Shown here piece after piece: positions 1,498 through 27,737 of a stretch of 33,995 nt of DNA. This stretch comes from an uncultured Ignavibacteriota bacterium (GTDB lineage: Bacteria > Bacteroidota > Ignavibacteria > Tepidaquicellales > Tepidaquicellaceae). How positions within the stretch are numbered: position 1 is the first letter of the stretch; each line of letters opens with the position of its first letter. The stretch is taken from positions 1 through 33,995 of the forward strand of contig CAIKZJ010000372.1 of NCBI GenBank assembly GCA_903831845.1. The letters run 5' to 3'. Position numbers and translations under genes: made by a program. The notes below the pieces were generated by a model. The model saw only the letters and a list, made by a program, of their open reading frames with translations. It was not told the origin of the DNA and did no database searches.

Positions 1498-2280
1498 CAA
1501 AAAAAGATTTACTTTCTTTCTGCAGCGATTATTGCTGTCGTATTCATTTCCCTGTTAGTCACTGAATCTTTTGCTTATCCTGGCGGGGTTGCTCTTAGAA
1601 CAAAGAAACATGTAACAACAGGTTGCGGCGGGTGCCACTCGCAAAATTCTGCGATCACAGGTTCAATAACCGGACCTGATTCAGTACTTGCCGGATCCAC
1701 AGTTACATTTACTCTTACAATCAATATGGCATCGGGTTCAGGAAAATATGGTGTTGATATTGCCGCCCTTAACGGTACGCTTGCTGTAATTTCCGGTTCC
1801 GGACTTAAACTTTTAAGCGGCGACCTCGTGCACAGCGCTGCGATTACATACGTCAATCCGAAAACCATTCAGTTCTCTTATACCGCTCCGGGCTCGGCTG
1901 GCTCTGATACACTCTATGCTACAATAGACAGAGGATATTCAGGAGCATATAACTGGACTCCAAATAAAGGTTTCAAAATTTACACGGTTTCGGGTATCGT
2001 CAACAATGAAACACCTGTCAGCTTTTACATGAACCAGAATTTTCCGAATCCTTTCAACCCCGTAACAAAAATCACTTACGGAATCGCAAAGGCGTCAAAC
2101 GTGAAAGTAACAGTATATGACATGACAGGCAGACAGGTTTCCTCACTTGTCAACGAATATCAGAATGCGGGTAATTACTTCGTGAATTTCGACGCTTCAA
2201 AATATTCATCGGGAATTTATTATTACAAAATTGAAGCAGGTGATTTCAGAGAAGTAAAAAAAATGTCGCTTATTAAATAA
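1495..2280 (+). CDS. T9SS-sorted choice-of-anchor V-type protein, copy 2 (CxxCH)
   Basis: A 261-residue paralogue of the upstream gene. It has a signal peptide (MQKKIYF, hydrophobic to about residue 27), then a canonical CxxCH motif (C44-G-G-C47-H48), a beta-rich domain containing GPDSVLAGSTVTF and SGSDTLYAT-like stretches, and a T9SS type A sorting domain. Its last 95 or so residues are nearly identical to copy 1, also at the DNA level, which points to recent duplication or gene conversion. CxxCH is the classic covalent haem c attachment motif, but there is only one and no haem-protein fold is recognisable, so haem binding is only a possibility. The start ATG lies in an A/T-rich palindrome with no Shine-Dalgarno site. 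A terminator follows. Confidence 0.87.
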   Translation: MQKKIYFLSAAIIAVVFISLLVTESFAYPGGVALRTKKHVTTGCGGCHSQNSAITGSITGPDSVLAGSTVTFTLTINMASGSGKYGVDIAALNGTLAVISGSGLKLLSGDLVHSAAITYVNPKTIQFSYTAPGSAGSDTLYATIDRGYSGAYNWTPNKGFKIYTVSGIVNNETPVSFYMNQNFPNPFNPVTKITYGIAKASNVKVTVYDMTGRQVSSLVNEYQNAGNYFVNFDASKYSSGIYYYKIEAGDFREVKKMSLIK

Positions 2281-2300
2281 TAAAAGTTAATTCCAATACG

Positions 2301-2328
2301 GCCCGGCTCTCAAAGCCGGGCTTTTTTA
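2301..2328 (+). terminator. Intrinsic terminator after T9SS paralogue 2
   Basis: An 8-bp GC-rich stem (gcccggct at 2301-2308 with agccgggc at 2314-2321) has a 5-nt loop and a T-run (ttttttatt), 20 nt past the stop codon. Confidence 0.88.
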
Positions 2329-2454
2329 TTTCCTTTTACGATTTATCTCCCGTTTTCCTTCTTTTCATTAACATATATCCGTTCGTTTTACTTGCTTTTT
2401 TAATTCTTTTTTTCATAAATTTACTTCAATATCCCCCTAATAATATACATAAAA

Positions 2455-3258
2455 ATGAAAACAACAAGAGATTCAATTTTTATTGTATTCATTCCTGTCA
2501 TTGTTCTTCTGATTGCCGCATTCAATAATTCATTTTCAAACCCCAACGGAATCAGCGGCAGGACAAAAAAAACTACAAGCGCGGGTTGCAGCAGCTGCCA
2601 TAACTTCGGCACCGGAATTACCGGAACTATCGAAGGTCCCGATTCGGTGCAGACGGGGCAGACAGTTATCTTTACCGTTACGCTGCTTTTTCCCGGACCG
2701 GCAAACGCAGGCGTCGACATCGCGGTGAAACGCGGATCACTTGCAGCAGGACCCGGCTCTTCATTTCTTAAACTTCTTAACGGTGAACTCACACACAAGA
2801 ACCCGATCGTCTTTACGAGCACCATATCGGTGGACTTCTCATATACTGCACCGGCTACAAGCGGCAGCGATACGCTTTATGCGACTATCGACAGAAACTA
2901 TACCGGCGCATGGAATTACATCGATAACCGCGGGATCAGAGTTTACAATTCGATAGGCATAACCGAAAATCAGACGCCCGTATTCTTCAGCATTTCGCAG
3001 AATTATCCGAATCCGTTCAATGCCTTTACAAAAATATGCATGAATATCAGAACTCCGGGTTTCGTGGAATTATCAGTATTCGATATAAAAGGCGATAAGG
3101 TCGCGTCCCCCGTCAGCAGCAGAATGTCTTCAGGTGAATACACTGCAATTTTCGACGCGTCTTCGCTTCCTTCGGGAGTTTATTTTTACAGGCTTGTGTT
3201 TTTTGACGCGAAAAACCGGGTGTATTCGGAGACGAAAAAAATGTCGCTCGTTAAATGA
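2455..3258 (+). CDS. T9SS-sorted choice-of-anchor V-type protein, copy 3 (diverged)
   Basis: A 267-residue third member of the tandem family. The N-terminal signal anchor (MKTTRDSIFIVFIPVIVLLIAAF) is followed by NPNGISGRTKKTTSAGC45-SS-C48-H49, a canonical CxxCH. The central domain keeps GPDSV, a VDIAVK..G segment and SGSDTLYATIDR. The C-terminal sorting domain is recognisable but diverged (NYPNPFNAFTK instead of NPFNPVTK, VFDIKGDKV, ETKKMSLVK). It is clearly older than the copy 1/copy 2 split. The gene converges on the next minus-strand gene with only 4 bp between the stop codons, and no terminator is visible there. Function unknown; exported surface protein. Confidence 0.85.
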   Translation: MKTTRDSIFIVFIPVIVLLIAAFNNSFSNPNGISGRTKKTTSAGCSSCHNFGTGITGTIEGPDSVQTGQTVIFTVTLLFPGPANAGVDIAVKRGSLAAGPGSSFLKLLNGELTHKNPIVFTSTISVDFSYTAPATSGSDTLYATIDRNYTGAWNYIDNRGIRVYNSIGITENQTPVFFSISQNYPNPFNAFTKICMNIRTPGFVELSVFDIKGDKVASPVSSRMSSGEYTAIFDASSLPSGVYFYRLVFFDAKNRVYSETKKMSLVK

Positions 3259-3262
3259 GCTG

Positions 3263-4462
3263 TCAGAGATAAAAAACGTTTTCCAGCTTGATTATCTTCA
3301 GAAGAGCCGACATCACAAAGTCGGTTGACGAATGAGGCTGCAGCAGGTCGCTCAGTATAAGATATTCGGCGGACTGGTACGCGTCCTCTATTACTTCCTG
3401 TATGTGAGCGTTGAATGGTTTCCATGTTGACTTCATGGAATAACCCTTGATTCCCCACATAAGGTTTTTATTTATGTTCCTTATCCTGGCGTCGATTGAC
3501 AATGCGCCCTTGCCGTGCGAATTGTCAGACAGGTCGACACCTTTAATCTCGTATATCCTGTGGTCTTTTCTTCCGGATGTCTCTTTTGCAATGCCTTCAA
3601 GATACAGATTTCTGTAGCATTCCCATCTGAGCGCTTCGATTAAATTGCCCTCCGTTTCTGCATTCAGAAAGACACCGTGCATCTTTTCAGCATAGACGGA
3701 GAGCTCTCTGCTTTTAAGCGAGGCAATTTTATCGATCTCCGAAAGTATGTTCTTCAGAGTATATGCCTTGTCTTCCTCTTCAAGTATATCGATAACATAG
3801 CTCAAAAGGATGTTGTAATGGTTTGTGAGAATTTTCACCCCGCTCTGTAAACGTTCCGGTATATTTTCGTCTATGAAACGGTTATACGAATCGACGTCGA
3901 GCTTCCCGTTCGATTTCCTTTTAAGCCGCGCAAGATCTTCAATCGCGTCGTGAAGCATTGCGGTAGCGCTGTATTCATAAGTACCGGGATCGTTCATCTT
4001 CAGCTGAAATACGACAGCTCCTACCCTGTTAAGGTGTGTTGCCGCTCCTATCTCGCATTTCCTTTTAAGGTTAAGTTCGTTGTACTTGATTATTATATTC
4101 CTGATGCTTTCCGAGTAATTTCCGTAAAATACCCCCAGATGCTTTGTATCGGGTATCCTGTTAAGCAGTATTGACGAATGCACGTTCTGATAATCGGCGT
4201 TTCTCTCTATCGCGTTTCTCGCAAGAGTGATTTCCATAGGAGAATCCGGATTATGTGAACGCACCTTTCTTGCGCTTTGAAAATTGCTTTTTATAAAATT
4301 CCTGATAAGCTGCTGAATTGCGCCTGCTTTTTGCCTTCCGTAAAGTGTTTCGAGTTTTTTTATATCGGGGCAGTTCAATTCGAGTATATCTCGCAGAATT
4401 GAATATGCAATCTCATAATTTTTGTTTAATTTTAATAATGATATGTCAGGAATAATAAACAT
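3263..4462 (-). CDS. Predicted HD-domain protein, SpoT/Mesh1-like hydrolase fold (tentative)
   Basis: A 399-residue soluble protein with no signal peptide. The middle contains H143 (ATHLNRVGAVVFQL), then a strong TAMLH171-D172-AIED176 motif, and later KGVD310-LSD313-N314. The order H, HD..ED, D-x-x-D-N resembles the metal-binding HD domain of RelA/SpoT/Mesh1-type (p)ppGpp hydrolases (H, HDxxED, then KLADR/LxN). The N-terminal 130 residues and C-terminal 80 residues are helical and not recognised; no synthetase, TGS or ACT domain is visible. The length is far from Mesh1 (about 180) and full SpoT (about 700), so this is either a divergent member or another HD phosphohydrolase. It is divergent from the BNR protein gene, with 81 bp of AT-rich promoter space between them. 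Substrate unknown. Confidence 0.6.
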   Translation of the reverse strand: MFIIPDISLLKLNKNYEIAYSILRDILELNCPDIKKLETLYGRQKAGAIQQLIRNFIKSNFQSARKVRSHNPDSPMEITLARNAIERNADYQNVHSSILLNRIPDTKHLGVFYGNYSESIRNIIIKYNELNLKRKCEIGAATHLNRVGAVVFQLKMNDPGTYEYSATAMLHDAIEDLARLKRKSNGKLDVDSYNRFIDENIPERLQSGVKILTNHYNILLSYVIDILEEEDKAYTLKNILSEIDKIASLKSRELSVYAEKMHGVFLNAETEGNLIEALRWECYRNLYLEGIAKETSGRKDHRIYEIKGVDLSDNSHGKGALSIDARIRNINKNLMWGIKGYSMKSTWKPFNAHIQEVIEDAYQSAEYLILSDLLQPHSSTDFVMSALLKIIKLENVFYL

Positions 4463-18261: not shown

Positions 18262-18738
18262 CTACTTTATATCTTTGATTATCTCTACCGCCTTTTCGGG
18301 GGTGAGTTTTGTGTAAATCTTATCGTTGACCATCATCGCGGGACCCTGGTCGCACATGCCTAAGCAGTTCGTGTGCTCGAGGGTTATCTTCTTATCTTTC
18401 GTTGTTTCTCCCGCTTTGCTGATCTTAAGTTCTCTCTTTATTGCTTTTTCGACTTCTTCCTTACCCGCCATGTCGCAGACTATTGTCCTGCAGAGTCTTA
18501 CGATGTTCCTTCCCTGCGGTTCGGAATGAAGGAATGAGTAGAAGGAAATCACGCTGTAAACCTCGACGGGATGAATGTCGAGCAGACGCGCTATTTCCTG
18601 CTGAGCAAAATCCGGAATGTATCTGTGCTTGCGCTGTACAGCCTGCAGAATCGGCATAAGCGCCGAACGTTCGCTTCCGTGCTCTTTAACCAGTGCTTCG
18701 AGTTCTTCTGTAATTGAATTTTTCTCTAATACTAACAT
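18262..18738 (-). CDS. NuoE/HydC-like [2Fe-2S] thioredoxin-fold subunit (second copy)
   Basis: A 158-residue member of the 24-kDa subunit family (NuoE, HydC). The helical N-terminus ends in ALMPILQAVQRKHRYIP, then IHPVEVYSVISFYSFL. The thioredoxin-like domain carries the four cluster cysteines C83-x4-C88 and C125-x3-C129 (CLGMC), so it should bind a [2Fe-2S] cluster. The family passes electrons between flavin subunits and partner proteins. It lies 6 nt behind a receiver gene and is transcribed away from the hydCBA genes, which already contain a NuoE-like subunit. It is only moderately similar to that one (RTIVC rather than RGTAC). It could be an alternative electron-input subunit or a redox partner of the signalling proteins. 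Function inferred from context only. Confidence 0.88.
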   Translation of the reverse strand: MLVLEKNSITEELEALVKEHGSERSALMPILQAVQRKHRYIPDFAQQEIARLLDIHPVEVYSVISFYSFLHSEPQGRNIVRLCRTIVCDMAGKEEVEKAIKRELKISKAGETTKDKKITLEHTNCLGMCDQGPAMMVNDKIYTKLTPEKAVEIIKDIK

Positions 18739-18744
18739 AAGCCC

Positions 18745-19113
18745 CTACTTTTTTAAAAGGTTTTCAACTTTTTGGATTAACATATCGGGTGAAATCGGCT
18801 TCTCGACGAAATCGTCAACCGGGACCATTTCGCTCGCTCCGAAATCCATTCCGACCGCCTTCGAAATCGATGTGTACATGATTATCGGCGTCTTGTTGTT
18901 TTCCCTGCGGAGTTTCTGCGCGAGAAAGAAACCGTCGTCGGGTTCGTCCATCATTACGTCAAGTATGATTAGATCGGGCTTGTTGTTCGTGATAATTTCA
19001 TATCCTTCTTTGGGATTGCTTGCGGTGATGACCTTGTAACCTTTTGATGATAATACCAGTTCGCTGGCTTCACGGATATCAGGATCATCGTCGATGACTG
19101 CTATGAGTGCCAT
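18745..19113 (-). CDS. Stand-alone response-regulator receiver domain
   Basis: A 122-residue single receiver domain with no output domain. The acidic pocket is D8-D9-D10, the phosphoacceptor D52 (IILDVMMDEPDDGF), the switch threonine T81 (IMYTSIS) and the conserved lysine K105 (FVEKPIS). The GGAGG ribosome binding site sits 5-6 nt before the ATG. It shares an unusual extended segment (LD-x-x-M-x-[ED]-x-x-D-x-GF-x-LA, later GM-x-F) with the receiver downstream of hydS, so the two are paralogues and probably serve the same kinases. First gene of a two-gene unit with the NuoE-like subunit. Output must be by protein-protein interaction or phosphorelay. Confidence 0.9.
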   Translation of the reverse strand: MALIAVIDDDPDIREASELVLSSKGYKVITASNPKEGYEIITNNKPDLIILDVMMDEPDDGFFLAQKLRRENNKTPIIMYTSISKAVGMDFGASEMVPVDDFVEKPISPDMLIQKVENLLKK

Positions 19114-19458: not shown

Positions 19459-19477
19459 GTATTTAAGTTTTTATTTG

Positions 19478-19512
19478 TATAATTATTTTCCCCGGAAACC
19501 GCGAAGGTTTCC
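19478..19512 (+). promoter_or_regulatory. Candidate hydCBA promoter element and 5' stem-loop
   Basis: A consensus TATAAT at 19478-19483, with a poor -35, would start transcription near 19490, immediately before a perfect stem-loop GGAAACC-GCGAA-GGTTTCC (19494-19512). The mRNA would then begin with a hairpin about 22 nt ahead of the hydC start codon, which can stabilise transcripts or control translation. Confidence 0.35.
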
Positions 19513-19534
19513 AAAAGACAAATTAAAGAATCAT

Positions 19535-20017
19535 ATGCATAAACAAATTTTTCAGAAGTATCCCGCCAAAGACAAGAGCAATCTTATAGCTCTTCTCCAG
19601 GCAGTACAGGATATTTACGGATATTTGCCCGAAGGCGCGTTGCAGGAAGTATCGGATTTTGTCGGCTTGCCGCTCAGCCGTGTTTACGGCGTCGCTACTT
19701 TCTACAACCAGTTCAGACTCACCCCGCTGGGCGAAAACGTAATACGCGTGTGCAGGGGTACTGCGTGCCACGTTTGCAATTCGGCGAACATATTGTTTAC
19801 ACTCGAAACCAATCTGGGTATCAAAGCGGGTCAGACAACCAGAGACAAGAAATTCACTCTCGAAACTGTCGCCTGTATCGGCGCTTGCTCGATCGCGCCG
19901 GTAATTACAGTCAATGACGAGTACTACGGAAAAATAACCGTTAAGGAAATTCCGGGCATTATCAAGAAATACAATGTTACTAAAGTTCAGGACAAACAGA
20001 AAGCAGGTGTAAAATGA
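19535..20017 (+). CDS. hydC: [FeFe]-hydrogenase HydC subunit (NuoE-like, [2Fe-2S])
   Basis: A 160-residue NuoE-family subunit of a trimeric NAD-linked [FeFe]-hydrogenase. Start chosen at the ATG giving MHKQIFQKYP; an upstream in-frame TTG (19475) would add 20 residues that run through the leader hairpin and do not look conserved. LIALLQAVQDIYGYLP and LSRVYGVATFYNQF are typical family stretches. The [2Fe-2S] cysteines are C73-x4-C78 (CRGTAC) and C114-x3-C118 (CIGAC). Known role: electron transfer next to the flavin subunit HydB. Its stop overlaps the hydB start (ATGA), showing translational coupling. Confidence 0.93.
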   Translation: MHKQIFQKYPAKDKSNLIALLQAVQDIYGYLPEGALQEVSDFVGLPLSRVYGVATFYNQFRLTPLGENVIRVCRGTACHVCNSANILFTLETNLGIKAGQTTRDKKFTLETVACIGACSIAPVITVNDEYYGKITVKEIPGIIKKYNVTKVQDKQKAGVK

Positions 20018-21999
20018 AAACATTCATAGACGTATGCTGCAAGGAATGCTGGCACTCGCCCGAAAAACCGTGCGACCAGTTCGTCAGATGCTGTACGGAA
20101 GGCCCTCTGTGCCACCACAACACTGACTGCGAAAAGAAATTCAGGGACCTGAATAAGAAATTAAGATACGAGGAACACGACGTTCCTATCATTATAATCG
20201 GAAAAGGCACCTGCGGCCTCGCCGCCGGCGCGCAGAAGGTCGAAGACGCGATAAGAGCCGAACTTTCTAAACTTAACATTAAAGCTAAGATAGAAACCAC
20301 AGGCTGCGTCGGATGCTGCGCCCAGGAACCGATAGTCGATATAAAACTCCCCGGCGGAGACAGGATTTCCTATTCGCAGGTCAGTCCGAAAATCGTACCG
20401 AGACTCATAAAGAAAACTCTAGTCGAAAAAGGAATTTTTTCCGAGAACGTTCTCGGCACGTACGGCAAATCTAACGGCGAAGTAAAGAACATAAACAAAA
20501 TCCCGTTCTTCGAACACCAGTTAAAGGTCGTTCTGGAGAACTGCGGGGTTGTTAACCCGACCTCCATCGACGCGTACATTTCAAACGGCGGTTTCAAGGC
20601 TCTCGATAAGGTCATATGCCACATGAAACCCGATGAAGTAGTGAAAGACGTTCTCGCAAGCGGTCTGCGCGGAAGAGGCGGCGGCGGGTTCCCGACAGGA
20701 AAGAAATGGGAATTTGCGCTTAAACAGAAATCCGAAACAAAGTATATAATATGCAACGCCGACGAAGGCGACCCGGGCGCGTTCATGGACAGATCGGTCC
20801 TCGAAAGCGACCCGTATAAGGTCGTCGAAGGTATGCTCATAGGCGGCTACGCTATCGGAGCTTCGCTCGGATACATTTACTGCCGCGCCGAATACCCGCT
20901 GGCTATCGAAAGACTCGAAAACACGATAAAGGAATGCAAGAGATACGGTCTGCTCGGCGAGAATATTCTCGGCAGCGGATTCACCTTCAACCTCAAGATT
21001 AAAAAAGGCGCCGGCGCGTTCGTTTGCGGCGAAGAAACCGCTCTGATTGCTTCTATCGAAGGCAAACGCGGCATGCCCAAACCCCGTCCGCCTTACCCGG
21101 CTGTCTCCGGTTTATGGAACAAACCGACTGTCATCAACAACGTCGAAACGTTCGCGAACATTCCGCAGGTATTCAAAAGAGGCTCGGAATGGTTTGCTTC
21201 TGTAGGAACGGCGTCCAGCAAAGGCACAAAAGTATTCGCTCTAAGCGGCAAGGTCAAGAATACCGGTCTCGTAGAAGTCCCGATGGGCATTACATTAAGA
21301 GAAGTCGTATTTAAAATCGGCGGCGGCATTCCTGAAAACAAGAAATTCAAAGCAGTACAGATAGGCGGTCCTTCCGGCGGTTGTCTGCCCGACCAGGTTC
21401 TCGATACCGTCGTCGATTACGAATCACTAAAGAAAGTCGGCGCGATGATGGGCTCGGGCGGTTTCGTTGTTATGGACGAAACCACGTGCATGGTCGACGT
21501 AGCGAAGTTCTTCCTCACGTTCATTCAGAACGAATCGTGCGGGAAATGCGTACCCTGCCGCGAAGGCACGAAACGTATGCTCGAAATAATCGAAAAGATT
21601 CCCCAGAGTTACAAGAACACAAAAAACAAACTGGACCAGCTTCAGAGATTCAAAGGCATCATTCACCTGCAGCGTCTCGCAGACGTTATCAAGGATACAT
21701 CGCTCTGCGGTCTGGGTCAATCGGCGCCGAATCCCATTCTCTCGGGACTGATGTATTTCCGCGACGAGTACGAAGAGCATCTGTATGACAGAAAATGCTC
21801 CGCAGGAGTCTGCAAGGAACTTCTCACGTTTGTTATCAACAACGACCTGTGCGAAGGCTGCGGACTCTGCGCCCGCAGATGTCCCGTCGAAGCTATCGTC
21901 GGTGACAAGGGTCAGGCGCATTACATCGTTGAAGACAAGTGCATTAAATGCGGAATGTGTGTCGACAACTGCAAGTTCGAAGCAGTGCTCGTTTCGTAA
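20014..21999 (+). CDS. hydB: [FeFe]-hydrogenase HydB subunit (NuoF-like, NADH/FMN/Fe-S)
   Basis: A 661-residue diaphorase subunit. Residues 8-39 form a cysteine-rich module (C8, C9, C12, C20, C26, C27, C33, C39) that I cannot assign. Next comes a thioredoxin-like [2Fe-2S] domain (GTC67GLAAG, C98VGCC102). Then the NuoF core: the FMN/NADH glycine-rich loop GLRGRGGGGFPTG from residue 217, ICNADEGDPGAFMDR, and the [4Fe-4S] site C509GKC512VPC515 with C565. The C-terminus is a two-cluster ferredoxin (C613, C616, C619, C623 and C643, C646, C649, C653). This is the domain order of HydB in HydABC-type electron-bifurcating hydrogenases, where NAD(H) reacts at the FMN. It lies between hydC and hydA in one operon. 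Confidence 0.95.
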   Translation: MKTFIDVCCKECWHSPEKPCDQFVRCCTEGPLCHHNTDCEKKFRDLNKKLRYEEHDVPIIIIGKGTCGLAAGAQKVEDAIRAELSKLNIKAKIETTGCVGCCAQEPIVDIKLPGGDRISYSQVSPKIVPRLIKKTLVEKGIFSENVLGTYGKSNGEVKNINKIPFFEHQLKVVLENCGVVNPTSIDAYISNGGFKALDKVICHMKPDEVVKDVLASGLRGRGGGGFPTGKKWEFALKQKSETKYIICNADEGDPGAFMDRSVLESDPYKVVEGMLIGGYAIGASLGYIYCRAEYPLAIERLENTIKECKRYGLLGENILGSGFTFNLKIKKGAGAFVCGEETALIASIEGKRGMPKPRPPYPAVSGLWNKPTVINNVETFANIPQVFKRGSEWFASVGTASSKGTKVFALSGKVKNTGLVEVPMGITLREVVFKIGGGIPENKKFKAVQIGGPSGGCLPDQVLDTVVDYESLKKVGAMMGSGGFVVMDETTCMVDVAKFFLTFIQNESCGKCVPCREGTKRMLEIIEKIPQSYKNTKNKLDQLQRFKGIIHLQRLADVIKDTSLCGLGQSAPNPILSGLMYFRDEYEEHLYDRKCSAGVCKELLTFVINNDLCEGCGLCARRCPVEAIVGDKGQAHYIVEDKCIKCGMCVDNCKFEAVLVS

Positions 22000-22035
22000 C
22001 TCTGTTTTTGAAAATAAAATTTGAATTTTAATAAT

Positions 22036-23751
22036 ATGGTAGAACTCACAATAAATAAGATAAAAGTTAATGCTGAAGAAGGAATGACGATTCTCGACGC
22101 CGCCAAATCGGCGGGAATCGCAATCCCGACTCTGTGCCACATGAAGAACCTCTTCCCCACCGGCGCCTGCAGAATATGTTCCGTCGAAGTGGAAGGCCAG
22201 AGAGGCCTCATTCCGAGCTGCGCGTATCCCGTTTACGAAGGCATGGTCGTGGATACGAACTCCCCGAGAGTGAGAAAAGCAAGGAAGACGATCGTTGAAC
22301 TTCTCATAGAAAACCATCCGCAGGATTGCCTCATTTGCGTCAGGAACAAGAACTGCGAACTTCAGGACCTTTCGGCGCAGTACGGCATCCGCGAGCACCG
22401 TTACGCGGGCGAATCCAAAGACCACGCTATCGATATTTCGAGCCCGTCGATGGAACGCGACCCTGCAAAGTGCATACTATGCGGCAGATGCGTGCGCGTC
22501 TGCAACGAAGTGCAGCAGGTCGGCGCCATCGATTTCACGAAGAGAGGTTTCCAGAGCATAGTTACCACTCCCTACAACAAAGGACTTAACATCAGCGACT
22601 GCATTCTCTGCGGACAGTGCATACTCGTATGCCCGACTGCGGCTCTTCGCGAAAAAGGCCAGTTAAAGGAAGTAGCTAACGCTATTAACAACAAGAATAA
22701 ATTCGTCGTGGCGCAGATAGCACCAGCGGTCCGCGCATCACTCGGCGAAGAATATAATATGCCGCTGGGCTCCGATGTGACCGGACAGCTCGTTACGGGA
22801 CTTAAAAGACTCGGATTCAAGAGAGTATTCGACACGAACTTCGCGGCCGACCTTACTATCATGGAAGAAGCCACTGAACTCGTAAACAGGGTTGCAACAA
22901 ATAAACCCCTTCCGATGTTCACGAGCTGCTGCCCGGGCTGGGTAAAGTACATTGAACACAGAAGACCGGAACTTCTTAAGCACGTTTCCACCTGCAAGTC
23001 GCCTCACGAAATGGAAGGCGCCGTGCTGAAAACATATTACGCGAAGAAAATCGGCATAGATCCGAAAGACGTTGTAGTGGTTTCAATAATGCCATGTACC
23101 GTTAAGAAATTCGAATCGAGCAGGCCGGAACTTTCCGAAGAATACATGCCCGACGTTGACGCGGTTCTCACAACAAGAGAACTCGTCAGGTATTTCAACA
23201 TGGCAGGCATCGATTTCTGCGATCTCCCGAGCACTGATTTTGATAATCCGCTCGGAGAATCAACAGGAGCAGCCATAATTTTCGGTACTTCAGGCGGCGT
23301 AATGGAAGCGGCCATAAGAACCGCGCACTTCATGATAACAGGCAAGGAACTCGAAAAACTGGAATTTGAACAGATAAGAGGTTTCGACGGGATTAAGGAA
23401 CTGTCGCTCGATCTCAACGGATTGAAACTCAATTTCGCGGTCGTTAACGGCATCGGCAATGTTGCGCAGGTTCTCGACCAGGTCGAAAACGGCACGTGCA
23501 AATATCACTTCATCGAAGTAATGGCATGCCCCGGAGGCTGCATTAACGGCGGCGGACAGCCCATTCATCAGAAACCCGAAAAGGTAATCAAGAGAGTAAA
23601 AGCTCTGTATGAGATCGACTCAAAGATGATGCACAGAAAATCGCACGAGAACGAATCAGTGAAAATACTTTATAAGGAGTTCTTCGGAGAGCCCAACAGC
23701 CATAAGGCTCACGAAATTCTCCATACTCATTATAAAAGCAGAAAAAAATAA
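22036..23751 (+). CDS. hydA: [FeFe]-hydrogenase catalytic subunit HydA (group A3 type)
   Basis: A 571-residue catalytic subunit that makes or splits H2. Start chosen at ATG 22036 (MVELTINKI); a TTG 15 nt earlier is possible. Domains: plant-type [2Fe-2S] (C34, C45, C48, C62), His-ligated [4Fe-4S] (H94, C98, C101, C107), two-cluster ferredoxin (C146-C156 and C189-C199), then the H-cluster domain. All three signature loops are canonical: L1 TSC298C299PGW, L2 MPC354TVKKFE, L3 EVMAC498PGGC502INGGGQP. The proton-relay cysteine C298 and the acidic pair in TIMEE278 are kept, so it should be fully active once matured. The NuoG-like front and the HydB/HydC partners point to the trimeric NAD/ferredoxin-linked type. 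Maturation genes hydEFG are not in the window. Confidence 0.96.
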   Translation: MVELTINKIKVNAEEGMTILDAAKSAGIAIPTLCHMKNLFPTGACRICSVEVEGQRGLIPSCAYPVYEGMVVDTNSPRVRKARKTIVELLIENHPQDCLICVRNKNCELQDLSAQYGIREHRYAGESKDHAIDISSPSMERDPAKCILCGRCVRVCNEVQQVGAIDFTKRGFQSIVTTPYNKGLNISDCILCGQCILVCPTAALREKGQLKEVANAINNKNKFVVAQIAPAVRASLGEEYNMPLGSDVTGQLVTGLKRLGFKRVFDTNFAADLTIMEEATELVNRVATNKPLPMFTSCCPGWVKYIEHRRPELLKHVSTCKSPHEMEGAVLKTYYAKKIGIDPKDVVVVSIMPCTVKKFESSRPELSEEYMPDVDAVLTTRELVRYFNMAGIDFCDLPSTDFDNPLGESTGAAIIFGTSGGVMEAAIRTAHFMITGKELEKLEFEQIRGFDGIKELSLDLNGLKLNFAVVNGIGNVAQVLDQVENGTCKYHFIEVMACPGGCINGGGQPIHQKPEKVIKRVKALYEIDSKMMHRKSHENESVKILYKEFFGEPNSHKAHEILHTHYKSRKK

Positions 23752-23754
23752 TAT

Positions 23755-25725
23755 ATGTACGGCACTGTTGAGACAATACCGGATCTGTGCAAGAGATGTT
23801 ACTCCTGCGTGAGAGAATGCCCGGCTATCGCCATCCGCGTAGAGCACGGGCAGGCAGTAGTCATGTCGGAGAGATGCATCGCATGCGGACACTGCGTCAC
23901 GGTATGCTCGCAGAACGCCAAACACACAAAGAGTGAAGCCGGCTACGTTCTCGGCGAGGTAATACCCCGCGGGAACGTAGTTGCCGTCGTTGCTCCCTCA
24001 TTTCCCGCGTCCTTCCCGGAAAATTTCCCGAAGGTCGCATCGGCATTGAGAAAACTCGGTTTCAGCAAAGTCTGCGAGGCGGCCTTCGGCGCCGATCTGA
24101 TAAGCCCGAAGTATCTCTCTGAAATCGAAAGGAACGGCAAAAAAACAATTATAAGTTCGGCCTGTCCCGCAATTTATAATTATATCGAAATGTATTTCTC
24201 CGAACTCGTACCGAAACTCGCTAAAATTGTCTCGCCGATGGTAGCTATGGGAAGGTACGTCAAGGAAACATTCGGGAAAGATACAAGCGTCGTATTCATC
24301 GGCCCGTGCATCGCGAAGAAAAGCGAATGCCACGACGAAAAAGTTGAAGGCGCGATTGACGCTGTGCTTACTTTCGCCGAACTCAAACAGATGCTGAATG
24401 AAAACAACATCGATTTGTCGGACCTTGATGAATCGGAATTTGACCCGCCTGAAGGACTCGTCGGCAAATCATTCCCCCTCGCTGGCGGACTGATAAAAAC
24501 CGCCGATATTCCGGGCGATATTCTCGAAAAGGAAATTATAGTGGTCGAAGGAAGAAGCAAGGTCGAGGAAATACTTCACGAACTGCTCAACAACAAGATT
24601 AACGCCAGATTCATCGACATACTTTTCTGCGAAGGATGCATTAAGGGACCGGCTATAGACAGCAACCTTAATTACTATTCAAGACGCGAAAAGGTAATTA
24701 ATTACATCCACGACAGGATGAGGGCTGCGGATAAACAGGTATGGAAAAGCAATATTTACAACGCCCGGAATATAGACCTGTCGAGGGAGTTCGAGAACCG
24801 CGATAAACGCCTTCCCGCTCCTGACGAAGAACAGATAAAGGAAATTCTCGCACAAACGAACAAGTTTTCAAAGCAGGACGAGCTGAATTGCAGAGCCTGC
24901 GGATATCTTTCATGCAGGGAATACGCGATTGCAATAGCTAAAGGCCTGGCCGAAAACGACATGTGCCTGCCTTACATGATAGATAAACTCGAAAAGGCAT
25001 ATAAGGAGCTTCAGGAAACACAGGAACAGCTTCAGTCGGCGGAAAAACTCGCGTCAATCGGACAACTCGCGGCAGGCGTAGCTCATGAGATAAACAATCC
25101 GCTCGGTACGATTCTCCTCTATACTTCCCTTCTCAAGAAAGACCTCGAGAAGAAACTCGAATCGCACCAGCCTATCGAGGATCTCGAACTCATCGCCGAG
25201 GAAACTAACAGGTGCAAGAATATTGTTTCAAACCTGCTTAACTTCGCAAGACAGGGACGCCTGAAAATTTCGGACGTCGACGTGTACGACCTGATTAACA
25301 CTATACTCAAGCCCGTGCGCGTCAGGCCTGAATTCAAGGGTATTTCATTCTCTGTCGAATGCGAGGCCGATGATACGACTATCAAAGGCGATTCCGACCA
25401 GCTGAAACAGGTTTTCATGAACGTTATTAACAACGCCTGCGAAGCGCTCGAAGAAAGCGAACAGAAAAGAGTGACAATTAAAATTTCCAAAGACGATACA
25501 TTTATAAATATTGAAATAAAGGATACAGGAAGCGGCATACCCAAAGAGAACATGGGTAAACTCTTTACTCCGTTCTTTACGACGAAAAAGATGGGCAAGG
25601 GCACGGGACTCGGTCTCGCCATAGTCTACGGCATTATCAAAATGCATAAAGGCGATATACGCGCGGCAAGCGACCCGGGGAAAGGCACAGCTTTTAACAT
25701 CAAATTACCATTAAATTTACAATAA
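23755..25725 (+). CDS. hydS: Sensory [FeFe]-hydrogenase-like protein fused to a histidine kinase (HydS type)
   Basis: A 656-residue fusion, 3 nt behind hydA. Order: two-cluster ferredoxin (C12, C15, C18, C22; C41, C44, C47, C51); H-cluster-like domain (about 75-320); a Fe-S module C379-x2-C382-x4-C387-x16-C404; a short coiled coil (about 410-430); HisKA with GVAH444EINNPLG; HATPase (NNACEAL, DTGSGIP, GTGLGLAIVYGI). H-cluster ligand cysteines are present: L1 SSA136C137PA, L2 GPC185IAKK, L3 FC292EGC295IKGP. Against HydA, the proton-relay Cys is Ala, the L2 Met is Gly and the L3 spacing is CxxC instead of CxxxC. Family knowledge: group C HydS proteins bind an H-cluster, have low activity and are thought to sense H2. 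No PAS or membrane segment is present. The likely role is to report H2 or redox state to the nearby receivers. Confidence 0.9.
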   Translation: MYGTVETIPDLCKRCYSCVRECPAIAIRVEHGQAVVMSERCIACGHCVTVCSQNAKHTKSEAGYVLGEVIPRGNVVAVVAPSFPASFPENFPKVASALRKLGFSKVCEAAFGADLISPKYLSEIERNGKKTIISSACPAIYNYIEMYFSELVPKLAKIVSPMVAMGRYVKETFGKDTSVVFIGPCIAKKSECHDEKVEGAIDAVLTFAELKQMLNENNIDLSDLDESEFDPPEGLVGKSFPLAGGLIKTADIPGDILEKEIIVVEGRSKVEEILHELLNNKINARFIDILFCEGCIKGPAIDSNLNYYSRREKVINYIHDRMRAADKQVWKSNIYNARNIDLSREFENRDKRLPAPDEEQIKEILAQTNKFSKQDELNCRACGYLSCREYAIAIAKGLAENDMCLPYMIDKLEKAYKELQETQEQLQSAEKLASIGQLAAGVAHEINNPLGTILLYTSLLKKDLEKKLESHQPIEDLELIAEETNRCKNIVSNLLNFARQGRLKISDVDVYDLINTILKPVRVRPEFKGISFSVECEADDTTIKGDSDQLKQVFMNVINNACEALEESEQKRVTIKISKDDTFINIEIKDTGSGIPKENMGKLFTPFFTTKKMGKGTGLGLAIVYGIIKMHKGDIRAASDPGKGTAFNIKLPLNLQ

Positions 25726-25755: not shown

Positions 25756-26175
25756 ATGACCGATACAGAAAACAAACCGAAGAAAGTCCTGCTTGTCGAT
25801 GACGACTATGACCTTCTCGAACAGAACAAAATGCTTCTGGAATCGAAAGGCTACAAAGTCGTAACGGCCGACAGTGTTGACAGCGCCTGGAAAATTTTTA
25901 AGGAAGAAAATCCGGACGCAGCTGTTCTGGACCTGATAATGGAAGAACACGATTCTGGGTTCATACTCGCGCACAGGATTAAAAGAGACGCTTACGGCAA
26001 AACAATACCCGTATTCCTTCTTACTTCGGCTACAATGGTCACCGGAATGAAATTCGGCGTGACAACGGGCGAAGAGAAAGAGTGGATTAACTGCGACGCC
26101 TGGTTCAACAAACCCATAAATATCGACGAACTTTCGACGAAACTTGAAGAGTGTTTCGAAACAAGGAAAATGTAA
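25756..26175 (+). CDS. Stand-alone response-regulator receiver domain, hydS partner
   Basis: A 139-residue single receiver domain with the acidic pocket D15-D16-D17, phosphoacceptor D59 (VLDLIMEEHDSGF), T90 (LLTSAT) and K119 (FNKPI). AAGGAGAA sits 7 nt before the ATG. It is the first gene after hydS and therefore the most likely phosphotransfer partner of its kinase. It is paralogous to the receiver on the other side of the hyd genes (shared LD..M.E..DSGF.LA and GM.F segments), although the loop before the conserved lysine is longer here (TTGEEKEWINCDAW). No output domain is attached. An intrinsic terminator follows. Confidence 0.9.
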   Translation: MTDTENKPKKVLLVDDDYDLLEQNKMLLESKGYKVVTADSVDSAWKIFKEENPDAAVLDLIMEEHDSGFILAHRIKRDAYGKTIPVFLLTSATMVTGMKFGVTTGEEKEWINCDAWFNKPINIDELSTKLEECFETRKM

Positions 26176-26249: not shown

Positions 26250-27737
26250 ATGACACAAATGGAAGATCACAGACCCAGAGTAATAATTATTGACGATGAA
26301 AAAGGACTTCGCATTGGCACGCAGAGACTGCTGCAAAGCGAGAATTTCGAAGTGGATACCGCAGAGAACGGAATGACAGGCATTAAGATGGCAACAGACT
26401 TTGAATACGACCTTGCAATAATCGACCTGAAAATGCCCGATATAGACGGCATTTCTGTATTGAAAGAAATTAAGAAAGCACATCCAAACACGATTTGCTT
26501 CATCGCCACGGCATATGCCAGCTACGATACGGCTATCGAAGCTACAAAGCTCGGAGCATTTACTTATATACCCAAACCATTCACGCCAGAAGAGCTTTTA
26601 CGAAACCTTAACGCCGGTTACGAAAGAAGGCTTCTTACCCTCGAATCGGAACGCCTGAAAAGGGAACGCGAAGAAAGACTCCTTGAACTCGCGTTCGAAA
26701 AATCGCGTCTGAATACGATAGTTAATTCTCTCGCCGACGGCGTATTCGTTGTGAACAAAAACGGCGAACTCGTTCTTTTCAATCCCGCGGCGATTAAGTA
26801 TATCGAACTGAACGAAATAATTCTCGGCGAAAAAATTCTCGGCATTCTGCCGAAGAAAATCAGCGAACTGCTTAGAAAAATACTCGACAACCCCGACTTT
26901 GAGAATAAAACGCTGTCGGCGGAAGTCGAACTGAAACCCGACCGCGAACTAGTAGTGGAAATAAAATGCTCGCCTGTCCCCCACCCGGACGGCTCTCTTG
27001 CGGGAGTTGTCACGGTTATCCGTAATATTACGGAAATGAAAAAGGTCGAATACGTTAAATCGCAGTTCGTGTCCATGGTGGCTCACGAGCTGAAAACCCC
27101 TATGGCTGCGGTTCTCGGCTTCTTCAACATTATTCTTAATCCGGATCTAAAGACAACCCCCGAACAGCAGACAGATTATCTTAACCGCTCAAGAAACAGG
27201 CTGCAGGGACTCGTCGAAATGGTAAACGACCTTCTCGATATATCGAGAATGGAAATGAAGACAAAGCAGCGCGAACTGAAAGAACTCAATATCGGCGAAA
27301 TTGTCAAAGGCACCGTCGATTTCCTCGAGCTCGAATGGAAAAAGAAAGGAATCTCTGTTACTTCGAAGTACGAAGATAACCTTCCCGTTTTCAAGGCGGA
27401 CAACAACGAAATCACGAGGCTCTTTACGAATATCATTGGCAATGCGATTAAATACAATAAGGACAACGGTACAATAGACGTGCAGGTTTATACGAACAAG
27501 AATTATATCGTCACGAAGATTTCAGATACGGGTATCGGAATGAGACCCGAAGATAAGGCTAGATTATTCTCCGAGTTCTTCAGGGTCAAGAACGAATACA
27601 CGAGAAACATAAGCGGCACAGGTCTCGGATTGTCTATAGTGAAAAGAATTGCTGAATCTTATTCAGGAAAAATCGAAGTTGAATCAGAATACACAAAAGG
27701 TTCGACATTCACAATCTATCTCCCCTTCACAAAATAA
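26250..27737 (+). CDS. Receiver-PAS-histidine kinase
   Basis: A 495-residue soluble protein. The N-terminal receiver (VIIIDDEKGLR, phosphoacceptor D59 in IIDLKMPDIDG, K in YIPKPFTPEEL) leads through a charged coiled coil (about 125-150) to a PAS domain (about 155-265: IVNSLADGVFVVNKNGELVLFNPAA). HisKA follows with MVAH279ELKTPMAAVLGF, then HATPase (IGNAIKYNKDNG, DTGIGM, GTGLGLSIVKRI). An alternative ATG lies 9 nt downstream. Having the receiver in front suggests that it is itself controlled by phosphorylation, for example by the upstream HydS kinase, and then signals onward. No DNA-binding domain. It may be a separate transcript, because a terminator precedes it by about 28 nt, but its position and strand tie it to the hydrogenase island. 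Confidence 0.9.
   Translation: MTQMEDHRPRVIIIDDEKGLRIGTQRLLQSENFEVDTAENGMTGIKMATDFEYDLAIIDLKMPDIDGISVLKEIKKAHPNTICFIATAYASYDTAIEATKLGAFTYIPKPFTPEELLRNLNAGYERRLLTLESERLKREREERLLELAFEKSRLNTIVNSLADGVFVVNKNGELVLFNPAAIKYIELNEIILGEKILGILPKKISELLRKILDNPDFENKTLSAEVELKPDRELVVEIKCSPVPHPDGSLAGVVTVIRNITEMKKVEYVKSQFVSMVAHELKTPMAAVLGFFNIILNPDLKTTPEQQTDYLNRSRNRLQGLVEMVNDLLDISRMEMKTKQRELKELNIGEIVKGTVDFLELEWKKKGISVTSKYEDNLPVFKADNNEITRLFTNIIGNAIKYNKDNGTIDVQVYTNKNYIVTKISDTGIGMRPEDKARLFSEFFRVKNEYTRNISGTGLGLSIVKRIAESYSGKIEVESEYTKGSTFTIYLPFTK

What the first reader, a model, noticed from the sequence alone, without database searches (positions are those of the whole stretch)
18262..18738. Second NuoE-like subunit coupled to a receiver gene
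A complete [2Fe-2S] NuoE-type protein (C83, C88, C125, C129) is translated 6 nt after a receiver, away from the hydCBA genes, which already have their own. It could be an exchangeable subunit that changes the electron donor of the complex, or a redox partner through which the receiver acts. NuoE-regulator pairings near [FeFe]-hydrogenases have been noted in Clostridia as I recall, but their role is unclear.
Basis: partly seen in the sequence, partly recalled or inferred. Interest (0 to 1): 0.5.

Follow-up and report, generated by a model that had tools for sequence, protein, structure and literature searches.

The report
Displaced subunit of a second hydrogenase
The small iron-sulfur protein next to the receiver gene is most likely not a spare part of the hydrogenase beside it, but the missing subunit of a second, simpler hydrogenase whose other two genes lie elsewhere in the same genome.

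Summary
In detail: window 18262-18738(-) is an intact NuoE-type [2Fe-2S] protein ("NuoE2") 6 nt after a receiver gene (RR1), divergent from an electron-bifurcating-type hydCBA. The suggested partner, HydB, is very probably wrong. On contig C207 of the same genome lies a two-gene operon, NuoF'-HydA': a second [FeFe]-hydrogenase without its own NuoE. In relatives these genes form one operon, RR1-NuoE2-NuoF'-HydA' (NuoF' directly follows NuoE2 in 70 of the 80 best-matching loci). In a genome inferred to be Melioribacter roseus, NuoE2 and NuoF' are one fused protein. In 149 class genomes, NuoE2 and NuoF' occur in the same 28 (ten longer HoxF-like hits set aside); bifurcating-type HydB is in only 14 of those. 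In 11 of 13 split genomes NuoE2 and NuoF' are the only unpaired NuoE and NuoF; contig breaks blur the other two. On the tree the split is one event. NuoF' lacks bifurcation-type features, so the second enzyme is probably a plain NADH-dependent hydrogenase, like Syntrophomonas Hyd1ABC. Some relatives carry both hydrogenases and an H2-sensor-like kinase cluster in one array. RR1's role is unresolved. Ordinary enzyme, mildly unusual gene arrangement.

The parts
18262..18738 (-). NuoE2: thioredoxin-fold [2Fe-2S] subunit (gamma/NuoE type), inferred subunit of the NuoF'-HydA' hydrogenase encoded on contig C207 of the same genome (L062:902-2101 and 2104-4020)
   Evidence: PF01257; orthology, fusion, co-occurrence and NuoE/NuoF bookkeeping
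18745..19113 (-). RR1: single-domain receiver directly upstream of NuoE2, 6 nt apart
   Evidence: PF00072; acidic triad, phospho-Asp context and Lys found in 97 of 97 sequences (about 87 distinct genes); upstream of NuoE2 in 79 of 80 loci
19475..20017 (+). hydC: NuoE-type subunit of the bifurcating-type hydrogenase (ATG at 19535 is an alternative start); ligand loop CRGTACH
20014..21999 (+). hydB: bifurcating-type beta subunit (A/M, GAGAF, GGPSG, CCxxC prefix domain, C-terminal ferredoxin-type motifs)
22021..23751 (+). hydA: catalytic subunit, NCBIfam [FeFe] group A6
   Evidence: NF040763 870.6 bits against cut-off 765
23755..25725 (+). HydS-like kinase: Fe-hydrogenase-like domain, FeS domain, HisKA, HATPase ('HydS-like' is my label, by recall of sensory hydrogenases)
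   Evidence: in relatives it precedes RR2, RR-PAS-HK, RR1 and NuoE2 in one array
25756..26175 (+). RR2: second single-domain receiver
26250..27737 (+). receiver-PAS-histidine kinase (RR-PAS-HK); in many relatives directly upstream of RR1

Best explanation
NuoE2 is the [2Fe-2S] gamma (NuoE/HydC-like) subunit of a second, probably non-bifurcating, NADH-dependent three-subunit [FeFe]-hydrogenase. Its flavin subunit NuoF' and catalytic subunit HydA' are encoded elsewhere in the genome (contig C207). Shown by sequence: NuoE2 is orthologous to the operonic and to the fused NuoE of that enzyme, it occurs where NuoF' occurs, and it is the only NuoE found that is left for it. Inferred: NuoE2 assembles on NuoF', and electrons pass between NADH/FMN and the H-cluster of HydA'. 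Inferred, weaker: RR1 is a phosphorylated receiver that regulates this hydrogenase, as a relay step in the neighbouring kinase cascade or by direct contact. Inferred: RR1-NuoE2 was separated once from an ancestral array hydCBA-HydS-RR2-(RR-PAS-HK)-RR1-NuoE2-NuoF'-HydA'-HK.
For: (1) Operon: NuoF' directly downstream of NuoE2 in 70 of 80 loci; next to it or fused in 28 of 28 loci L171-L198 (partly the same species as before). (2) Fusion: one 560-aa NuoE2::NuoF' protein followed by HydA' (Pfam) in a genome of 3,300,414 bp, the length published for M. roseus, whose paper calls Mros2487 'fused'. (3) Co-occurrence: NuoE2 in 28 of 149 class genomes and the 395-aa type of NuoF' in the same 28; bifurcating-type HydB in 22, of which 14 have NuoE2. 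(4) Bookkeeping: in 11 of 13 split genomes exactly NuoE2 and NuoF' are the unpaired NuoE and NuoF. (5) No NuoE beside NuoF' in the 11 of 13 split genomes where the DNA upstream of NuoF' is held; in G007 and G028 the contig ends there. (6) The 13 split NuoE2 sequences are one side of one branch, SH-aLRT 91 (quick tree). (7) Ligand loop C[RKQ][TN]I..C in 101 of 101 NuoE2 sequences, against C.GTACH in 9 of 9 HydC and in the 5 PDB gamma subunits whose alignments were shown. (8) NuoF' has T/K and no GGPSG in 89 of 89, as non-bifurcating beta subunits do.
Against: No physical evidence: no complex was modelled or measured; NuoE2 could bind HydB as well. Co-occurrence follows phylogeny, so the Fisher p-values overstate independence; NuoE2 is also associated with HydB (HydB in 14 of 28 genomes with NuoE2 against 8 of 121 without). 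The split is one event, so 13 genomes are not 13 observations. The window's genome is a 470-contig MAG; often only 8 first-look candidates per genome were scored, so HydB may be undercounted. G005 and G019 have extra unpaired pieces. The GGPSG criterion is not clean: the NiFe-type HoxE::HoxF fusions L158-L161 have T/K and yet GGPSG, and HydB of G007 lacks GGPSG. RR1's role rests on neighbourhood, and RR1 was not found beside NuoE in deeper relatives (G012, G013, G069, G137, G391, G405, G489).
Confidence: 0.91

Rival explanations
1. NuoE2 is an exchangeable alternative to HydC on the adjacent bifurcating-type HydAB and changes its electron donor.
For: Same fold family; in 9 family genomes, window included, the pair sits divergently next to hydCBA. 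NuoE-type subunits dock on NuoF-type proteins (established knowledge, not tested here).
Against: 14 of 28 class genomes with NuoE2 lack the bifurcating-type HydB, and 8 HydB genomes lack NuoE2. HydB has its own hydC. Ligand loop unlike that of the 9 HydC checked. NuoE2 is fused to NuoF' in L199.
Confidence: 0.05
2. (On RR1 only) RR1-P binds NuoE2 or the NuoE2-NuoF' module and controls activity or assembly of the second hydrogenase; the pair is a regulatory unit.
For: RR1 directly upstream in 79 of 80 loci, in most overlapping or within 15 nt; no output domain; phospho-site found in 97 of 97; beside NuoE2 in 13 of 13 split genomes; present in G010, G017, G018, G024 and G025, whose only [FeFe]-hydrogenase domain hit is HydA', so without the HydS-like kinase.
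Against: Only one split event. Deeper relatives have NuoE-NuoF'-HydA' without RR1 beside it, with a GntR gene upstream in G013. No interface evidence.
Confidence: 0.25
3. (On RR1 only) RR1 is an ordinary phosphorelay or cascade component of the neighbouring kinases, merely co-transcribed with the enzyme it helps to regulate.
For: Order HydS-RR2-(RR-PAS-HK)-RR1-NuoE2 in many relatives; RR1 and RR2 are related receivers; a membrane-type kinase like that at the operon's 3' end is found in 18 of 18 family genomes with RR1 and in 1 of the 11 others (G016, 67% complete).
Against: No DNA-binding output or target gene was identified; no phosphotransfer was tested. Three genomes have two such kinases, and in several the copy lies on the contig of another NuoE-NuoF cluster, about 10 kb away, so orthology is unsure.
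Confidence: 0.65
4. NuoE2-RR1 is a decaying relic left behind after the operon was broken.
For: It is separated from NuoF'-HydA' in 13 genomes.
Against: Intact in all 13, low dN/dS among the few usable pairs, cysteines kept; NuoF' and HydA' are intact in the window's genome.
Confidence: 0.02

Closest known systems
[quoted passage not shown] Losey 2020, PMC7311640: passages and one whole section seen)
   Same: NuoE-type gamma, NuoF-type beta and [FeFe] alpha subunit; the beta residue pattern; in S. aciditrophicus gamma and beta are fused, as in L199. The paper names Ignavibacterium among genera with predicted non-bifurcating enzymes.
   Different: Here gamma is encoded apart from beta and alpha, behind a receiver gene and beside another hydrogenase's operon. 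Activity is untested.
Melioribacter roseus MROS_2480-2488 (PMC3534657 and PMC5492636: passages seen)
   Same: By inference the L199 locus: HydC-HydB-HydA-HydS-RR2-(RR-PAS-HK)-RR1-[NuoE2::NuoF']-HydA'-HK. [quoted passage not shown]
   Different: Gamma and beta are fused there; in the window's genome they are on different contigs. The genome paper likens its hydrogenases to the bifurcating T. maritima enzyme.
Electron-bifurcating HydABC / BfuABC (Feng 2022, PMC9304861: passages seen)
   Same: The adjacent hydCBA fits: HydB with extra clusters, A/M, GGPSG; HydC with C.GTACH.
   Different: NuoE2 and NuoF' lack these features.
NAD-reducing [NiFe] HoxEFUYH type
   Same: The next NuoF relatives found in this class (50-52% identity) are, in the four examined, NuoE-NuoF (HoxE::HoxF-like) fusions; Pfam shows [NiFe]-hydrogenase and receiver genes after the one in L158.
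   Different: Catalytic subunit is [NiFe].

Membership tests
NuoE / [2Fe-2S] thioredoxin-like subunits (PF01257) | Full-length domain match and four cysteine ligands | tested here: met
   E 5.2e-50 over 14-158; 4 Cys in 101 of 101; model pLDDT 83.8, pTM 0.61, best fold matches are NuoE-type chains, with TM about 0.5 and rmsd about 10, probably because the two parts are not in the bound orientation
Non-bifurcating NADH-dependent trimeric [FeFe]-hydrogenase (Hyd1ABC type) | Beta subunit without the extra [Fe-S] domains of bifurcating enzymes | tested here: met
   NuoF' 399 aa: Complex1_51K, SLBB (below cut-off) and NADH_4Fe-4S only; no CxxCxxCxxxC motif
Non-bifurcating NADH-dependent trimeric [FeFe]-hydrogenase (Hyd1ABC type) | Beta residues T/S and K/S/A at T. 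maritima HydB 232/234; no GGPSG at 427-431 | tested here: met
   T and K in 89 of 89, GGPSG absent in 89 of 89; positions counted by hand on the 7p5h_B alignment
Non-bifurcating NADH-dependent trimeric [FeFe]-hydrogenase (Hyd1ABC type) | Tyr instead of Phe at the position printed as 367 | tested here: inconclusive
   By my count on 7p5h_B 367 is not Phe; the residue described may be that of GAGA[F/Y] (312), where 79 of 89 NuoF' have Y (10 not parsed) and 7 of 7 HydB have F
Non-bifurcating NADH-dependent trimeric [FeFe]-hydrogenase (Hyd1ABC type) | H2 production from NADH without ferredoxin | not testable with these tools
   needs enzymology
Bifurcating HydC (BfuC) of the adjacent HydABC | Tracks HydB across genomes; C.GTACH ligand loop | tested here: not met
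   14 of 28 NuoE2 genomes lack HydB; loop absent in 101 of 101. That C.GTACH marks the type is my inference from 9 HydC and 5 PDB chains
Response-regulator receiver (RR1) | Acidic residues, phospho-Asp and conserved Lys | tested here: met
   97 of 97

The most novel reading that the evidence does not exclude
RR1 is a phosphorylation-controlled protein switch that docks on NuoE2 and decides whether the plain NADH-dependent hydrogenase is assembled or active, so that H2 or redox signals sensed by the cluster's kinases select between the bifurcating and the non-bifurcating hydrogenase after translation. The pair stayed together when the operon broke because it is a working unit.
Probability: 0.15. 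Interest if true: 0.7.

Novelty: new member of a known kind. Interest (0 to 1): 0.3.

Why it matters
It assigns a misleadingly placed subunit to its enzyme, predicts two [FeFe]-hydrogenases of different energetics (bifurcating and plain NADH-dependent) near one two-component cluster in Ignavibacteria, and warns against assigning NuoE-type subunits by neighbourhood. If the receiver acts on the enzyme, it would be a direct route from H2 sensing to the choice of hydrogenase.

Tried and rejected
Exchangeable HydC: rejected on distribution, fusion and bookkeeping. Decaying relic: rejected on intactness and dN/dS. Phage origin: tblastn in phage records gave 9 weak matches, all under 60% identity (best 36.1%). 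The structure model shows only the fold and says nothing about the partner. The Fisher p-values ignore phylogeny and are not relied on. Paper searches: all five of response regulator, NuoE, FeFe, histidine kinase and operon in one paper gave none; others (12 of 47 listed; 11 listed) showed, by title and start of abstract, nothing on this pair; I did not open those papers on this question except PMC9304861 (passages). This is no proof that it is unpublished.

Corrections and rows set aside: the first map of the 80 loci lost NuoF' where it overlaps HydA'; a laxer overlap rule was used. One search scores 78 of 80 with RR1; L081 fails only through a spurious 93-aa ORF between (RR1 is listed there and) and L119 is a contig edge, hence 79 of 80. 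The 80 loci are the best 80 of 372 confirmed places, so they lean to close relatives. In one search a strict pattern passed 83 of 97 receivers; a relaxed one passed 97 of 97. Of the sets, ten genes are present twice (family genomes and named records). In one search I left out one weak NuoF hit of G022 (E 1.1e-5) and counted three pieces on G007:C292 as one gene; the weak partial NuoE hit on C75 was also not counted. Of ten long NuoF hits only four were examined.

Full report
Observation. The ORF at 18262-18738(-) is a complete 158-aa NuoE-type protein (PF01257, E 5.2e-50) with the four stated cysteines; the receiver at 18745-19113(-) ends 6 nt before it. The pair is transcribed divergently from hydC-hydB-hydA-HydS-RR2-(RR-PAS-HK) on the + strand. 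The genome (G000, 470 contigs) has four full NuoE-type genes: one on C322 (complex I-like, my reading of the map), hydC and NuoE2 on C372, and one on C75; a fifth, partial hit lies within the NuoF gene of C75.

The missing partner. NuoE2 orthologues were found in 21 of 29 family genomes at E 1.5e-37 or better, plus a contig-end fragment in G016. Gene maps showed RR1-NuoE2 alone, or RR1-NuoE2 followed by a 395-419-aa NuoF (NuoF') and a roughly 623-aa [FeFe]-hydrogenase (HydA'); G012 and G013 have a more distant NuoE-NuoF'-HydA' without RR1, and in G011 the contig ends upstream of NuoE2. A search with NuoF' found it at 48% identity or more in 22 of 29 genomes, including all 13 genomes with a lone pair; in the window's genome it is on contig C207. 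There NuoF' (399 aa) and HydA' (638 aa) form a two-gene operon with no NuoE beside it. The same is seen in the other split genomes, with these gaps: in G007 and G028 the contig ends at NuoF', so the upstream side is not held, and in G005 HydA' is cut.

Bookkeeping. Pairing NuoE and NuoF genes by position in the 13 split genomes leaves exactly NuoE2 and NuoF' unpaired in 11; in G005 hydC and HydB lie on different contigs, and in G019 one extra NuoF piece is left (rows set aside are told under Tried and rejected).

Wider distribution. A scan of named genomes with a NuoE2 alignment kept the best 80 of 372 confirmed places; most titles name Ignavibacteria, Ignavibacteriae, Melioribacter or Stygiobacter or their higher groups, the rest only Bacteroidetes, Bacteroidota, Chlorobiota or 'bacterium'. 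RR1 is directly upstream in 79 of 80 and NuoF' directly downstream in 70 of 80; the other ten are the split type. In 30 of 80 the stretch held also shows the A6-type HydA or HydB, the HydS-like kinase and RR-PAS-HK. The whole eleven-gene order is seen in L167 and, with NuoE2-NuoF' fused, in L199. A quick tree of 100 NuoE rows puts the 13 split sequences on one side of one branch (SH-aLRT 91). In a sample of 395 genomes of the phylum, NuoE2 (E up to 1e-30) was in 43, all of this class; in the 28 new loci from it RR1 is upstream and NuoF' next or fused in 28 of 28, though some are genomes already seen.

Partner test by co-occurrence. In 149 genomes of the class, NuoE2 (E up to 1e-32) is in 28. 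NuoF' (E up to 1e-110) is in 38; ten of these are 50-52% identical hits inside 608-647-aa frames, of which the four examined (L158-L161) are NuoE-NuoF fusions, and Pfam on L158 shows the next genes to be of a [NiFe]-hydrogenase. The remaining 28 are the same 28 genomes as for NuoE2. The adjacent type of HydB (E up to 1e-230) is in 22, of which 14 have NuoE2 (often only 8 candidates per genome were scored).

Fusion. G309 has a 560-aa ORF whose N-terminal part is NuoE2 and whose remainder is NuoF', followed by HydA'. Its 3,300,414 bases equal the published length of Melioribacter roseus, whose genome paper calls Mros2487 'fused' and names Mros2488 as a catalytic subunit. [quoted passage not shown] The identity of G309 with M. 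roseus, and of the genes, is inferred.

What kind of enzyme. Losey 2020 gives criteria for bifurcating and non-bifurcating beta subunits. NuoF' has T and K at the first site and lacks GGPSG in 89 of 89; HydB has A and M in 7 of 7 and GGPSG in 6 of 7. GGPSG is not clean, since the HoxF-like fusions have it together with T/K. The residue printed as 367 could not be placed with certainty; at GAGA[F/Y], NuoF' has Y in 79 of 89 (10 not parsed) and HydB has F in 7 of 7. NuoF' lacks the N- and C-terminal domains of HydB. NCBIfam's A6 model matches HydA' above its cut-off too (786.7 against 765), so the two catalytic subunits are relatives and this model does not tell them apart. NuoE2's ligand loop differs from the C.GTACH of HydC and of five bifurcating-enzyme chains in the PDB. 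The second enzyme is therefore predicted to be a plain NADH-dependent hydrogenase.

The receiver. RR1 keeps its phosphorylation residues in 97 of 97. It is present in five family genomes whose only [FeFe]-hydrogenase domain protein is HydA', hence without the HydS-like kinase. A kinase like that at the operon's 3' end occurs in 18 of 18 family genomes with RR1 and in 1 of the 11 others (G016, 67% complete); three genomes have two copies, and in several the copy lies on the contig of another NuoE-NuoF cluster, so it is only a candidate. RR1 was not found beside NuoE in G012, G013, G069, G137, G391, G405 and G489; whether it is elsewhere in these was examined only for G012 and G013, where no close match appeared. 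Whether RR1 touches NuoE2 is open.

Verdict. The gene is an ordinary subunit with a displaced address; the neighbouring operon misled the interpretation. The open, testable point is the function of the receiver.

Noticed in passing
L158-L161 (e.g. L158:5166-6980): HoxE::HoxF-like fused proteins whose NuoE part shows only three of the four cysteine ligands, with a receiver gene downstream; in L158 Pfam shows [NiFe]-hydrogenase genes between.
   Followed up: partly
L104, L109, L111, L128, L144, L169, L170, upstream of RR1: HydC-like genes of 120-184 aa stand next to RR1 or one gene away, without hydB-hydA-HydS-RR2 between: probable deletion remnants of the ancestral array.
   Followed up: partly
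G000 contig C75 (L057:11100-13455) and L059:10140-16737: A further NuoE-NuoF pair with the loop CHGTACH, followed in L059 by a 1238-aa molybdopterin / FAD / NuoG-like fusion.
   Followed up: no
L054:8960-9634: In G013 a GntR-family gene, not RR1, precedes NuoE-NuoF'-HydA'.
   Followed up: no
L110, L113, L128, L170: HydA' appears as two ORFs, perhaps assembly frameshifts.
   Followed up: no
window 23755-25725: The HydS-like kinase runs from an FeS domain (PF04060) into HisKA; no PAS domain was listed by Pfam at E 0.001.
   Followed up: no
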